From: a virus
Virus record (IMG/VR): IMGVR_UViG_3300005826_000039
Location: 1-34,716 of that record
Length of the DNA: 34,716 bases
Direction: 5' to 3' (one strand)
The notes under the pieces are model-generated. The model worked only from the letters and a program-made list of their open reading frames with translations, searched no databases and was not told where the DNA came from. Numbering within the stretch: position 1 is the first letter of the stretch; every line of letters begins with the position of its first letter. This document shows, in pieces, positions 3,214 to 30,513 of this stretch. The translations under genes and the position numbers were made by a program.

Positions 3214-4736
3214 GCTGGCTAGATTTTTTTCGATCCAAGAAGGCGAAACCTTCGGCCAAACGTACTGCGTTCAGCGCAGCTAACCTCAACCGCCTCACTG
3301 TAGATTGGACGACAGATCTAGGAACCGTAAACAGGTGGCTGCGGTGGGAGTTGCGTACGCTGCGTCTGCGTTCGCGGGCGCTGGTGCGGTCAGACAGCTA
3401 CGCGAACAAGTATATCAACGCCTGCGTAGACAACATTGCCGGCCCATATCCTTTCATCCTTGAAGGCAAGATTAAATTCGACACAACTGGCTTGCCGAAC
3501 GATGCCGCAAACGATCAAATAGAGGACGGATGGGAAGAATGGAGCAAGCCAGGTAATTGTGATGTGACAGGCAAGCTGAGCTTGCCAGAGATTCATCGCT
3601 CGATTATTCGCGGGCTGGCTCGTGATGGCGAAGTGCTTATCCGCAAGTACATCGGACCACAATATGGGCCGTATGGAATTCAGCTTCAGCTTCTAGACAT
3701 CGAAAGGCTTGATGAGCAGAAGAATGATCTGCTGACTGATGGCGCGATCAAGATGGGTGTCGAAGTGGATATGTTTTCGCGCCCACGCGCCTATCATATT
3801 CTGCGCGACAATCCAGGAGAACTAGGCGAATGGTCGCGCGGCAGTATGCGTGATTATGAGCGCGTGCCAGCTAATCAGGTTACGCACTTATTTATCGCGG
3901 ATTGGCCGGAGCAGGTGCGCGGCGTCCCTTGGCTGAATGCGTCCATGACGCGGCTGTACCAGTTAGGCAAATTCGAGGAAGCAGCATTGATTGCTGCTCG
4001 AGTAGGCGCGAGCCAGATGGGCGTCATCTATTCAGAGAGCGGAGACGCGCCGCCGATTGGCCAGGAGATATTGACAAGCGAGGGGCAGGCCGCAAGTGAT
4101 GGCACCCCGCTATTGCACGCGGAACCGGGCGCGTTCCCAGTGCTTGGTCCGGGGTATCGCCTAGAAAGCTGGAACCCTCGTTACCCAGATGCGCAGGTTG
4201 AGCCATTCATCCGCGCATGCCTGCGCGGTGCGTCTGCAGGCGTGCGGATGGCCTACCATTCTTTTGCGAACGATTCTGGCTCGGTCAATTACTCAACTGC
4301 GCGTGTAGCCTTGTTAGAAGAGCGCGATATGTGGTCTTCTATCCAGCGCTGGTATGTAGAGCATTTCTGTGACCAGTTGTTTCTTTCTTGGCTCGGCGCC
4401 GCGTCTCTATCACAAGCATTGCCTGGTATCGATAGGCCGCGCAATCGCAAAGTTAAGTTTATCGCTCGCACATGGGACTGGATCGACCCGCAGAAAGAAA
4501 TGGATGCGAAGGTAACGGCCCTTGATGCGCAGCTAACGTCGCGGACTCGCATTGCCGCTCAATCTGGCCAGGACTTCGAGGACATCGTAGAGGAGTTGGC
4601 ACAGGAGCAAGCATTGATGGCTGCGAAAGGCTTGGAGCCTTCGAATCAACAGCCCGCGCCAAATGCACAAGAAGTAATGCAACCACAAGAAGATGCGACA
4701 GATACAGAGGAAGCAGTAGATGAATCTAACAGTTAG
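3210..4736 (+). CDS. Portal protein, lambda gpB family
   Basis: 508 residues, close to lambda gpB. It forms the dodecameric vertex through which DNA enters the head. Family signs: an N-terminal basic stretch, LRLRSRALVRSDSYANKYI (about 50-68), conserved IIRGLARDGEVLIRK (about 130-144), HLFIADWPEQVRGVPWL (about 223-239), and AYHSFANDSGSVNYSTARVALLEE (about 348-371), the gpB-type clip/stem signature. The C-terminal 45 residues are acidic, Gln-rich and low in complexity. ATG lies in ATGA with the upstream stop; the end overlaps the protease-capsid gene by 17 bases. Confidence 0.95.
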   Translation: MSWLDFFRSKKAKPSAKRTAFSAANLNRLTVDWTTDLGTVNRWLRWELRTLRLRSRALVRSDSYANKYINACVDNIAGPYPFILEGKIKFDTTGLPNDAANDQIEDGWEEWSKPGNCDVTGKLSLPEIHRSIIRGLARDGEVLIRKYIGPQYGPYGIQLQLLDIERLDEQKNDLLTDGAIKMGVEVDMFSRPRAYHILRDNPGELGEWSRGSMRDYERVPANQVTHLFIADWPEQVRGVPWLNASMTRLYQLGKFEEAALIAARVGASQMGVIYSESGDAPPIGQEILTSEGQAASDGTPLLHAEPGAFPVLGPGYRLESWNPRYPDAQVEPFIRACLRGASAGVRMAYHSFANDSGSVNYSTARVALLEERDMWSSIQRWYVEHFCDQLFLSWLGAASLSQALPGIDRPRNRKVKFIARTWDWIDPQKEMDAKVTALDAQLTSRTRIAAQSGQDFEDIVEELAQEQALMAAKGLEPSNQQPAPNAQEVMQPQEDATDTEEAVDESNS

Positions 4737-28130: not shown

Positions 28131-28303
28131 CGATTCGCCCCCCACATCGTCGAGACCGGCACGAAGGCGCGACGGCTGCCTAGCCGCTTGTCAAGCTCTG
28201 CCCGCTTCCAGGCCCATTCGATACGCTTCTTGCGGGACCATGCCGGAAAGAGGCGGTGTGCCTGGTGTAGGCAGGCAATCACGTGTTTTATATCGTCGTT
28301 CAT
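28127..28303 (-). CDS. Small basic early protein, unknown
   Basis: 58 residues from ATG 28303, preferred over ATG 28315 because GGAG sits 7 bases upstream of it. Rich in Arg, Lys and Trp: DDIKHVIACLHQAHRLFPAWSRKKRIEWAWKRAELDKRLGSRR. It could bind nucleic acid, but no motif is diagnostic. The gap upstream (28304-28382) holds the end of a duplicated segment. Confidence 0.6.
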   Translation of the reverse strand: MNDDIKHVIACLHQAHRLFPAWSRKKRIEWAWKRAELDKRLGSRRAFVPVSTMWGANR

Positions 28304-28382: not shown

Positions 28383-28616
28383 TCATTCGCCATATTCCTT
28401 AACCCAATCCAAATAAGAGACCACCCATTCAATATCGTTTTGCTTTTTCTCCGCAAACATGCCTCTGTGGTGCCGCAAATACCAGGCTTTGAATTCTTCT
28501 AGACGATCCTTTTCTCGTAAAAATCGTTTTCCCTCCTTGTTGATATCAACAATCCAATCGTTTATCTTTGATTTTATTAGATAGCGCATAAAGCGCTCAT
28601 CCAAAAGTGGATTCAT
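28383..28616 (-). CDS. Small charged early protein, unknown
   Basis: 77 residues from ATG 28616, preferred over ATG 28634 because GGAG lies 8 bases upstream, in the same context as the gene start at 28917. Helical, with many charged residues (FMRYLIKSKINDWIVDINKEGKRFLREKDRLEEFKAWYLRHH) and ending VVSYLDWVKEYGE. Its last 14 codons are duplicated at 27434-27475. After its TGA the same frame stays open for another 22 codons, probably a remnant. Confidence 0.65.
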   Translation of the reverse strand: MNPLLDERFMRYLIKSKINDWIVDINKEGKRFLREKDRLEEFKAWYLRHHRGMFAEKKQNDIEWVVSYLDWVKEYGE

Positions 28617-28630
28617 TCGTAAGTCTCCAG

Positions 28631-28825
28631 TCACTCGACGTGCACGTATTCAGCGAACAGTCGCAGCGCCTCTTCGTAGCTATCGCACTGAAACAACCGG
28701 CCCACCATTTCGTTCGCGAGGTCTGCATGCCCATGCACCTTGAGTGCTTTGCTGACGGTGCCGCTGAGAAAAAAGACGTTGCCATTTATTCCCACGAGTT
28801 CCACAACTACATCGGTTTTCGGTTC
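28631..28825 (-). CDS. Small early protein, unknown
   Basis: 64 residues from ATG 28825, with GGGAGG 6 bases upstream. The first half is beta-like (EPKTDVVVELVGINGNVFFLSGTVSKAL), the second helical (HADLANEMVGRLFQCDSYEEALRLFAEYVHVE). The stop is followed closely by the ribosome binding site of the next gene, inside a 27-base repeat. No family recognised. Confidence 0.65.
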   Translation of the reverse strand, partial: EPKTDVVVELVGINGNVFFLSGTVSKALKVHGHADLANEMVGRLFQCDSYEEALRLFAEYVHVE

Positions 28826-28845: not shown

Positions 28846-28917
28846 TTAAACAATCCGGCCAACCAGCCGCGCATCCTCGGCGTATTCGCTGAGCGTCTTG
28901 CTTGTATTCCAATTCAT
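28846..28917 (-). CDS. Possible 23-residue peptide gene
   Basis: MNWNTSKTLSEYAEDARLVGRIV starts at ATG 28917 in an ATGA overlap with the previous gene's stop, with CTGGAG upstream. It ends at TAA 28846, just before the GGGAGG of the next gene. Length is too short for certainty, but the start context is repeated exactly at 28616, where a longer gene begins. Confidence 0.4.
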   Translation of the reverse strand: MNWNTSKTLSEYAEDARLVGRIV

Positions 28918-29138
28918 TCGTAAGTCTCCAGCCACTCGCAGTAAGCCTCGTCCCAGCCAGCCGCTTCGCGGCGGTCGTCATCGCCAAATGTAGTCCAGTA
29001 GTACCTGTAGAAATTAGCTAGCTGGGCGGTCTGCTCGTCTAGCCATTCCTCGATGGTCATCGTCTCGGCGAACGGGCCGTCAAGCTTACCTTCGCCGCCG
29101 TCGTACATCAGCTCATCACGCTCAACGCTGCTTGCCAT
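28914..29138 (-). CDS. Acidic first gene of the leftward operon, unknown
   Basis: 74 residues with AAGGA 6 bases before ATG. Very acidic: VERDELMYDGGEGKLDGPFAETMTIEEWLDEQ, then QLANFYRYYWTTFGDDDRREAAGWDEAYCEWLETYE. Net charge and small size recall phage proteins that mimic DNA or inhibit host enzymes, but that is only analogy. As the first gene from the leftward promoter it is made earliest. The parS-like site lies in its untranslated leader. Confidence 0.65.
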   Translation of the reverse strand: MASSVERDELMYDGGEGKLDGPFAETMTIEEWLDEQTAQLANFYRYYWTTFGDDDRREAAGWDEAYCEWLETYE

Positions 29139-29178: not shown

Positions 29179-29207
29179 AGCATAAGCCTCTATCATAGGC
29201 ATGTCAA
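29179..29207 (-). promoter_or_regulatory. Leftward early promoter
   Basis: On the minus strand: TTGACA (29207-29202), 17-base spacer, TATGCT (29184-29179). Consensus -35 and good -10 predict a start near 29172, giving a 34-base leader that contains most of the parS-like site. It would transcribe the operon from 29138 to 24416. Confidence 0.75.
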
Positions 29208-29225
29208 GCTCTATTTTTATAGGTC

Positions 29226-29254
29226 TTGACAATCGCAACGTCTATGTCTATCAT
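29226..29254 (+). promoter_or_regulatory. Rightward promoter of the repressor gene
   Basis: TTGACA (29226-29231), 17-base spacer, TATCAT (29249-29254). The predicted transcription start is about 29261, the A of the repressor ATG, so the mRNA should be leaderless, as is the lambda cI mRNA from PRM. Confidence 0.75.
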
Positions 29255-29260
29255 TACGCC

Positions 29261-29449
29261 ATGAAGACTGATGAAATAGTCCAGCGTATCGCCAGCCTAG
29301 AGCAACCTCAGCTCCGATATATCGCTGCTGCTACAGGCATATCGCATGCCACGCTTTGCGCGATGAAGTACGGGCGCACGACTAACCCGACTGGCAAGAC
29401 GTGTGATACGCTGCGCGAATACTTCGAGGCGCACGACTTTAAAGACTGA
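29261..29449 (+). CDS. Small Cro/CI-like repressor, probably leaderless
   Basis: 62 residues from ATG 29261, chosen because the in-frame ATG at 29201 lies upstream of the promoter elements. The helix-turn-helix is LRYIAAATGISHATLCAMKYGRTTNPTGKTCDTLREYF (about 18-55). Length is near lambda Cro (66), with no cleavable C-terminal domain as in CI. It probably binds the TCTAT sites on both sides and decides between leftward and rightward transcription. No other repressor-like gene is seen. Two hairpins, one a strong terminator, follow it directly. Confidence 0.78.
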   Translation: MKTDEIVQRIASLEQPQLRYIAAATGISHATLCAMKYGRTTNPTGKTCDTLREYFEAHDFKD

Positions 29450-29498: not shown

Positions 29499-29530
29499 GC
29501 CATCAGGCTTCGGCCTGGTGGCTTTTTTTT
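29499..29530 (+). terminator. Rho-independent terminator after the repressor
   Basis: GCCATCAGGC, TTCG, GCCTGGTGGC, followed by eight T. The 10-bp stem has one G-T pair and a UUCG tetraloop. It should end the repressor transcript, so the next rightward genes need readthrough or their own promoters. Confidence 0.92.
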
Positions 29531-29540
29531 CGCCAGGCCC

Positions 29541-29727
29541 TTGACGGCTCGCTCGAGCTGCGCGAAGATAGAGCTGCACTGACTGGCAGGCGGTGTGGCA
29601 AAGCGAAATAACGAAAGGCCCCAGTGTGTCAAGTAGGGCTGCAACGCAACGCGTGCGCTTTCGTTATTTCGAGCACGCTTGCCGCGCTGCCAGCGCCAGC
29701 CCTACTTAGCATGACTGGGGCTTTTTT
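29541..29727 (+). ncRNA. Candidate structured RNA between two terminators
   Basis: This stretch has no gene but several perfect complementary blocks. A, CGAAATAACGAAAG (29604-29617), pairs with A' (29658-29671). B, GCCCCAGT (29618-29625), pairs with B' (29714-29721). C, AAGTAGGGCTG (29631-29641), pairs with C' (29697-29707). A' lies in the loop of a GCGTGC/GCACGC hairpin (29651-29656, 29673-29678), and GCGCT/AGCGC (29684-29696) forms another. A-A' crosses B-B', so they form a pseudoknot or alternative folds. Six T follow B'. A weak promoter, TTGACG (29541-29546), would start an RNA of about 150 bases. Function unknown: regulatory RNA, put-like antiterminator or origin RNA are options. Confidence 0.6.
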
Positions 29728-29759
29728 ATGCAATATCTTCAAATCATCAAGAACACGCA

Positions 29760-29790
29760 GCCGCTAGCGAGCGATCCTAGCGGCTTTTTT
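29760..29790 (+). terminator. Rho-independent terminator
   Basis: GCCGCTAG (29760-29767) pairs with CTAGCGGC (29777-29784), loop of 9 bases, then six T. It is the third terminator-like structure between the repressor and the zinc-finger gene. Confidence 0.88.
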
Positions 29791-29808: not shown

Positions 29809-30147
29809 ATGGCAATGAATCAAATTACTTGGGCGCTAACTGATCACCTATGTAGAGGATGCGGTGGACGGGTGCTAAAAAGTGTTAGCGGTGCTGGTGC
29901 AACTCCTGGAGGGAATCCCATTTGGAAATGTGCCGATTGCGGAAAATCTAACTGTGGGATTGGGCCAGAAATATTGTGTTGGTGCGGTTCTAGCCACAAG
30001 TTGAACCACAATATGACGGCATACATTTGCAAGCCGTTTGCTCTGCTCGAAAGTAGGCCAGAACTACTTGCAGCATTTCTGGCGTGCGGATGTGATCCGA
30101 AACGTGGTGGCGAAGTAGGGATTATGTTAGAGCGTGATTTTAGGTAA
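29809..30147 (+). CDS. Small zinc-finger protein, unknown
   Basis: 112 residues. Cysteine pairs CRGC (15-18), CADC and the near CNCG-type groups (WKCADCGKSNCG, ILCWCGSSHKLNH, ACGCDP) suggest two zinc ribbons or a treble clef, with His in the second. The C-terminal part is helical (ALLESRPELLAAFLACG). No good ribosome binding site precedes ATG, and the gene follows a terminator by 18 bases, so it may be leaderless or start at the second ATG (29815). No family recognised; DNA or RNA binding is plausible. Confidence 0.65.
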   Translation: MAMNQITWALTDHLCRGCGGRVLKSVSGAGATPGGNPIWKCADCGKSNCGIGPEILCWCGSSHKLNHNMTAYICKPFALLESRPELLAAFLACGCDPKRGGEVGIMLERDFR

Positions 30148-30470
30148 TGGCTGAGAAGGTCGTCATCGGCTTTAGGTAATACGTCAGGGCGCGTTAGCTA
30201 ACACCCGTGCTCCGGGGGTACCCAGGACAGGAGCGGCGCCTTGCAGCCACCGGCCAGCGCCAGCGGAACTCGGTGTAGGTATCCGCGAGAACAGGGATGC
30301 AGCGACGAAGCGACTAGGCCGCGTAAGGTCCCCTGGAAATCGAATACACCTGGGAAAGCAAAGCAGCCTGAGGAAGATCTAGCTGCTGGTGGGTGTTATT
30401 GTCTTTAGGTTTTGCTGGAGATATTGCGGCCCAGAAAATAGAGCTTGACAAGCGCAGGATAGACGTATAG
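30148..30470 (+). ncRNA. Non-coding stretch with nested RNA-like fold
   Basis: No convincing gene lies here. Complementary blocks are all compatible with one fold: TAACACCC (30199-30206) with GGGTGTTA (30391-30398) encloses CCCAGG/CCTGGG (30221-30226/30349-30354), which encloses CCTTGC/GTAAGG (30239-30244/30323-30328) and then GCGGA/TCCGC (30263-30267/30282-30286). A side hairpin, AGCAGC/GCTGCT (30362-30387), sits inside the outer stem. The 8-base repeat CTTTAGGT lies on both sides (30170-30177, 30403-30410). No U-tract follows. It does not match tmRNA, RNase P or tRNA by eye. Strand is assumed from the neighbouring genes. Confidence 0.5.
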
Positions 30471-30499
30471 CTTGATATGCTGCTGCTGCCATTTATATT
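30445..30499 (+). promoter_or_regulatory. Promoter candidates of the ParB-like gene
   Basis: TTGATA (30472-30477), 16-base spacer, TATATT (30494-30499) predicts a start near 30506, only about 8 bases before ATG 30514. An upstream TTGACA (30445-30450) has a poorer -10 (TATAGC or TAGCTT). CCTATAGG (30500-30507) overlaps the predicted start and resembles the immunity-region operators. Confidence 0.55.
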
Positions 30500-30513
30500 C
30501 CTATAGGTCAATC

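What the first reader, a model, noticed from the sequence alone, without database searches (positions are those of the whole stretch)
29541..29727. Knotted RNA-like element between terminators
Three perfect complementary block pairs (14, 8 and 11 bases) cross: A pairs with the loop of a GCGTGC/GCACGC hairpin that lies within the B-C stem, and the B-C stem ends in a U-tract. The whole is flanked by two good terminators. Long, perfect and crossing pairings in so short a stretch are unlikely by chance. It could be a trans-acting RNA, a switch between two folds controlling termination, or a DNA-level origin.
Basis: partly seen in the sequence, partly recalled or inferred. Interest (0 to 1): 0.75.

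Follow-up and report, generated by a model that had tools for sequence, protein, structure and literature searches.

The report
Bistable terminator RNA in orphan phage
Just downstream of a phage's early regulator gene lies a short RNA-coding stretch that can fold in two competing ways, one of which is a stop signal for transcription; it is probably a built-in switch or small RNA, but no relative is known in which to test this.

Summary
A/A' (14 bp), B/B' (8 bp) and C/C' (11 bp) are at the stated places. A/A' is the longest closely spaced perfect inverted repeat in the window. Dinucleotide shuffles give no comparable crossing pairs; real phage DNA gives about one per 90 kb, none with a U-tract. 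The element is the most structured + strand stretch of the window for its GC.

It reads best not as a stable knot but as two long hairpins that cross. Fold I is a 28-bp terminator stem ending in U6. In nested prefix folding, fold II holds the transcript (P=1.00) until about 29716; fold I then wins by about 9 kcal/mol. The best-supported mechanism is therefore a + strand terminator with a pre-emptive, antiterminator-like fold (confidence 0.4). It lies between an early HTH regulator gene and the next + strand genes.

Main rivals are a structured terminator with an incidental template-switch repeat (0.3) and a trans-acting sRNA (0.2). No relative of the element turned up in Rfam, phages, plasmids or IMG/VR, and the phage has no close kin, so covariation could not be tested.

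The parts
29261..29449 (+). small HTH (Cro-like) regulator gene upstream; promoter TTGACA-17-TATCAT at 29226-29254, possibly leaderless
   Evidence: PHROG transcriptional regulator, E 2e-5; promoter scan 11/12
29499..29530 (+). terminator T1, which ends the HTH gene's transcript
   Evidence: 10-bp stem, 4-nt loop, T8
29541..29569 (+). weak promoter-like site (TTGACG-17-GAAGAT, 8/12), possible own promoter of the element; unproven
   Evidence: read from sequence; below the scanner's threshold
29585..29601 (+). 5' arm of the outer helix of fold II (16 bp with 29679-29697, 3 G-U)
   Evidence: constrained fold; duplex better than 97-98% of shuffles
29604..29617 (+). block A, pairs with A' (pre-emptive or antiterminator-like helix)
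   Evidence: 14/14 complementary
29618..29625 (+). block B, basal 5' arm of the terminator stem (fold I)
29631..29641 (+). block C, upper 5' arm of the terminator stem
29651..29678 (+). inner hairpin GCGTGC/GCACGC that displays A' in a 16-nt loop when fold I is formed
29658..29671 (+). block A'
29679..29697 (+). 3' arm of the outer helix of fold II
29697..29707 (+). block C', upper 3' arm of the terminator stem
29714..29727 (+). block B' and U-tract TTTTTT: 3' end of terminator T2
29759..29790 (+). terminator T3
   Evidence: 9-bp stem, loop 9, T6; -17.1 kcal/mol

Best explanation
The element is a + strand intrinsic terminator with a built-in pre-emptive fold, acting as a cis-acting termination switch between the early HTH gene and the next genes (Zn-ribbon-like ORF, ParB-like ORF). 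Shown by computation: during transcription the nascent RNA can first form a 30-bp hairpin (outer helix plus A/A'), complete at 29697. The 28-bp terminator hairpin can form only once C' and B' are out (29707-29721), and it is then the more stable fold by about 9 kcal/mol. Inferred: because the two stems cross and share almost no bases (AAAG of A, one base of C'), an early A/A' hairpin slows the terminator stem at the moment the U-tract is made. Part of the polymerases would then read through. Whatever holds A or A' (a ribosome, a protein, a second RNA carrying A') would restore termination.
For: The blocks are perfect and non-random. A/A' has probability 1.00 in prefixes ending 29672-29716 from three different 5' starts, and the terminator takes over at 29718-29722. 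With flank and loop shuffled, only 3.8% of controls keep C/C' closed out at 29714. Fold II is extended by a 16-bp outer helix to 30 bp; full-length energies are -74.0 for fold I and -64.8 for fold II. G-U pairs in both stems and the T6 tract point to the + strand; on the minus strand the two folds are equal, -63.6 and -63.2. It is the most structured + strand window for its GC of 3460 windows on both strands. It sits just downstream of the early regulator gene, among tandem terminators.
Against: No transcript data, no relatives and no covariation. The pre-terminator fold as a whole is not unusually stable (z -1.1, 145 of 1000 shuffles as good). The outer helix is only 2-3% by shuffling. The antiterminator does not capture a terminator arm as in classical attenuators, so the exclusion rests on geometry and kinetics that nested folding cannot model. 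From a shorter start (29595), which lacks most of the outer helix, the terminator stem begins to win already at about 29706. With T1 upstream and T3 downstream it is unclear which transcript would be regulated. No sensor or ligand site was recognised.
Confidence: 0.4

Rival explanations
1. A long structured terminator (the 3' end of an ordinary transcript or one of three tandem terminators) in which A/A' is an incidental inverted copy left by a replication template switch, with no regulatory role.
For: Template switching makes perfect reverse-complement copies in one step (PMC8794818). The A block looks like the A-rich flank of ordinary bidirectional terminators: an unrelated contig carries AATAACGAAAGG...CCTTTCGTTATT as a plain palindromic terminator. 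Crossing repeats occur about once per 90 kb in other phage DNA. Pre-terminator stability is ordinary.
Against: A' lies inside the terminator loop and A directly against its base, the arrangement that gives a late takeover; the extra 16-bp outer helix is not explained by one 14-nt copy.
Confidence: 0.3
2. A trans-acting small RNA of about 150 nt (29576-29727) with its own weak promoter and T2 as its 3' end. A' in the 16-nt loop is the seed, and A masks it or pairs between two copies, somewhat like phage P4 CI RNA with seqA.
For: It is isolated by T1 and T3; TTGACG-17-GAAGAT lies at 29541-29569. In the finished fold, most of the A' loop and 8-9 bases of A are unpaired. In P4, the CI RNA pairs with seqA upstream and seqC downstream (PMC4825925).
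Against: No second target: the next best A-like site in the window has 3 mismatches, at chance level. The promoter is poor. No Rfam match. No host is known in which to seek targets.
Confidence: 0.2
3. A DNA-level element: inverted protein-binding sites (A and A', 40 bp apart) or a replication or packaging site that extrudes or is bound as DNA.
For: The GC-skew turning point lies near 29 kb; the strongest comparable crossing repeat in lambda lies in its left, cos-proximal end.
Against: G-U pairs and a U-tract on one strand fit RNA. No iterons nearby. The skew turn coincides with divergent transcription. The terminase genes lie at the other end of the window.
Confidence: 0.08

Closest known systems
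Terminator/antiterminator attenuators (trp-type leaders; antisense-controlled pT181/pIP501-type attenuators)
   Same: Two alternative hairpins in one transcript; the earlier one blocks an intrinsic terminator; order of synthesis decides.
   Different: The early helix here crosses the terminator stem instead of sharing one of its arms (overlap AAAG plus one base); no leader peptide, ligand or antisense RNA was found. Comparison with named systems is from general knowledge.
Phage P4 CI RNA with seqA/seqC (and P1/P7 c4 RNA)
   Same: A block displayed in a structured RNA is complementary to a block just upstream in the same transcript, in a phage regulatory region (PMC4825925; PMC12197685).
   Different: No downstream seqC-like copy; an intrinsic terminator with U6 is part of the element, whereas CI RNA is processed out of a longer transcript; no sequence or Rfam match.
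Salmonella Gifsy-1 IsrK
   Same: A prophage small RNA of two lengths, also compared by its authors with P4 seqA RNA (PMC4825925).
   Different: No sequence similarity was seen (Rfam, which holds known prophage sRNAs, gave no match); two RNA lengths are not shown here.
rrnB T1-like bidirectional terminators
   Same: AAATAA(A)CGAAAGGCCC 5' flank and stem (resemblance from general knowledge; similar plain terminator in L035).
   Different: Here the complement of the A-rich flank lies inside the loop, not after the stem, and the loop is 55 nt and branched.

Membership tests
Terminator/antiterminator attenuator | Intrinsic terminator: GC-rich stem followed by a U-tract | tested here: met
   28-bp stem, U6
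Terminator/antiterminator attenuator | An alternative hairpin that forms earlier and excludes the terminator | tested here: met
   prefix folding, control 3.8%; nested model only
Terminator/antiterminator attenuator | Antiterminator captures an arm of the terminator | tested here: not met
   stems cross; overlap only AAAG 29614-29617 and base 29697
Terminator/antiterminator attenuator | Read-through changes with a signal | not testable with these tools
   needs transcription assays
P4 CI / P1 c4 immunity RNA | seqA-like complement upstream of the displayed block | tested here: met
   A/A' 14/14
P4 CI / P1 c4 immunity RNA | second complementary target downstream (seqC) or at a target gene | tested here: not met
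   no further copy above chance
P4 CI / P1 c4 immunity RNA | match to a known RNA family model | tested here: not met
   no Rfam match
P4 CI / P1 c4 immunity RNA | RNA processed from a longer transcript | not testable with these tools
   no RNA data
Conserved phage sRNA | conservation or covariation in relatives | tested here: inconclusive
   no relative of the element in phages, plasmids or IMG/VR; closest portal protein 35%

The most novel reading that the evidence does not exclude
A topological termination switch: a long hairpin made early in transcription blocks a later terminator not by taking one of its arms but by closing the loop through which the terminator strand would have to wind, and it is released by a phage or host factor, perhaps by the A' loop of another copy of the same RNA.
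Probability: 0.12. Interest if true: 0.7.

Novelty: new variant of a known kind. Interest (0 to 1): 0.37.

Why it matters
If the crossing fold really controls termination, it would be an RNA switch in which the order of folding and topology, rather than competition for one arm, decide read-through in a phage early region. If not, it is a clear example of how long perfect repeats can decorate an ordinary terminator.

Tried and rejected
Rfam at gathering and permissive thresholds: nothing on the element, only sub-threshold chance hits on T1. Blastn in phages gave one 44-nt match to Streptomyces phage Issmi at 29529-29572, outside the blocks; it lies in a GC-rich coding stretch and its relatives match at E about 3, so taken as chance. 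Plasmids: none for the element. IMG/VR patterns: 0, 0 and 1 (the last a plain terminator in an unrelated contig). Relatives of the HTH, ParB-like, exonuclease, Zn-ribbon and portal proteins are distant, and none of the early-region loci held a counterpart. A small ORF through the element (29572-29709) has no relatives. A shuffle-based structure scan timed out and was replaced by a GC regression. The genome search could not be used for relatives of a virus record. tRNA, tmRNA: none.

Full report
Setting. The window is a whole IMG/VR virus record of 34,716 bases with lambda-like head and tail genes on the + strand; the terminase large subunit is about 41-45% identical to those of Wolbachia phage WO, Pseudomonas and Rhodobacter phages. 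The best portal match in IMG/VR is 35%, so it is an orphan. The early region is divergent: a leftward operon starts at 29138; a small HTH gene (29261-29449, PHROG transcriptional regulator) starts rightward from a strong promoter (TTGACA-17-TATCAT). After the HTH gene come terminator T1 (29499-29530), the element with its own terminator T2 (29722-29727), terminator T3 (29759-29790), a Zn-ribbon-like ORF (29809-30147) and a ParB-like ORF (from 30514).

Observation. All three block pairs are exact. A/A' is the longest closely spaced perfect inverted repeat of the window, and no shuffle produced its like. With the terminator arms kept fixed, 600 shuffles never gave a flank-to-loop helix of 14; the largest was 12. 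Against 362 kb of other phage and bacterial DNA the figure is more modest: four crossing pairs of comparable total length, mostly in GC-rich sequence and one at lambda's left end, none followed by a U-tract. A GC-corrected scan puts the element first of 3460 windows on the two strands, on the + strand; the dinucleotide z-score is -3.8 on the + strand and -2.9 on the minus strand.

Anatomy. Fold I is a 28-bp stem (29613-29641 with 29697-29726) with a branched top, in which A' sits in a 16-nt loop, followed by U6. Full length from 29576, fold I is -74.0 and fold II -64.8 kcal/mol. G-U pairs in both stems are standard pairs only on the + strand; on the minus strand the two folds are equal in energy. 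With the U6 tract this points to a + strand RNA.

Order of folding. Nested prefix folding from three starts gives A/A' probability 1.00 for transcripts ending anywhere from 29672 to 29716, and then a switch to the terminator between 29718 and 29722 (from a shorter start at 29595 the switch comes at about 29706). In shuffled controls only 3.8% keep C/C' closed out at 29714. On the other side, the total stability of the pre-terminator transcript is not unusual (z -1.1), and the outer helix is only at the 2-3% level.

Knot or switch. A full knot would need A, which lies directly against the base of a stem of about 28 bp, to reach A' at the far end, or the inner hairpin to melt and 16 and 25 nt of loop to span the stem; winding the terminator strand through a closed A/A' loop is hindered while the RNA's end is held by polymerase. 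These are geometric inferences, not computed. I therefore prefer two alternative folds in time to one persistent knot.

Reading. The best-supported mechanism is a terminator with a pre-emptive fold (0.4). An incidental template-switch repeat beside or within a structured terminator is a serious rival (0.3): such events make perfect stems in one step (PMC8794818), and the A block resembles the flank of common bidirectional terminators. A trans-acting sRNA (0.2) fits the isolation between terminators and the displayed loop, and resembles the P4 CI/seqA layout described in PMC4825925, but lacks a second target and a convincing promoter. A DNA-level role is least likely (0.08).

Limits. Nested folding does not model pseudoknots or kinetics.

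Noticed in passing
29189-29217 (minus) and 30435-30463 (plus): The same 29-nt promoter/operator-like module (AAAATAGAGCTTGACA..GATAGA, 86% alike) lies at the leftward early promoter and before the ParB-like gene; a 15-nt exact piece of it also lies at 28185-28199. Probably a shared operator.
   Followed up: partly
29254-29261: The HTH gene's ATG lies about 7 nt after its -10 hexamer, so its mRNA may be leaderless.
   Followed up: no
L009 about 1290-1350 and L010 about 3940-4000: In two other viral contigs, relatives (77% and 72%) of the Zn-ribbon-like ORF 29809-30147 are preceded by palindromes ending GTTAGGGC that look like integron attC sites, as if the gene travels as a cassette.
   Followed up: no
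28611-28637 and 28912-28938: 27-nt direct repeat (96%) spaced 301 nt in the leftward early operon.
   Followed up: no
30150-30510: About 360 bases without an assigned gene between the Zn-ribbon-like and ParB-like ORFs; not unusually structured (z 0.6).
   Followed up: partly
29572-29709: An open frame of 45 codons runs through the element and stops next to C'; no start with a good ribosome site and no relatives.
   Followed up: yes
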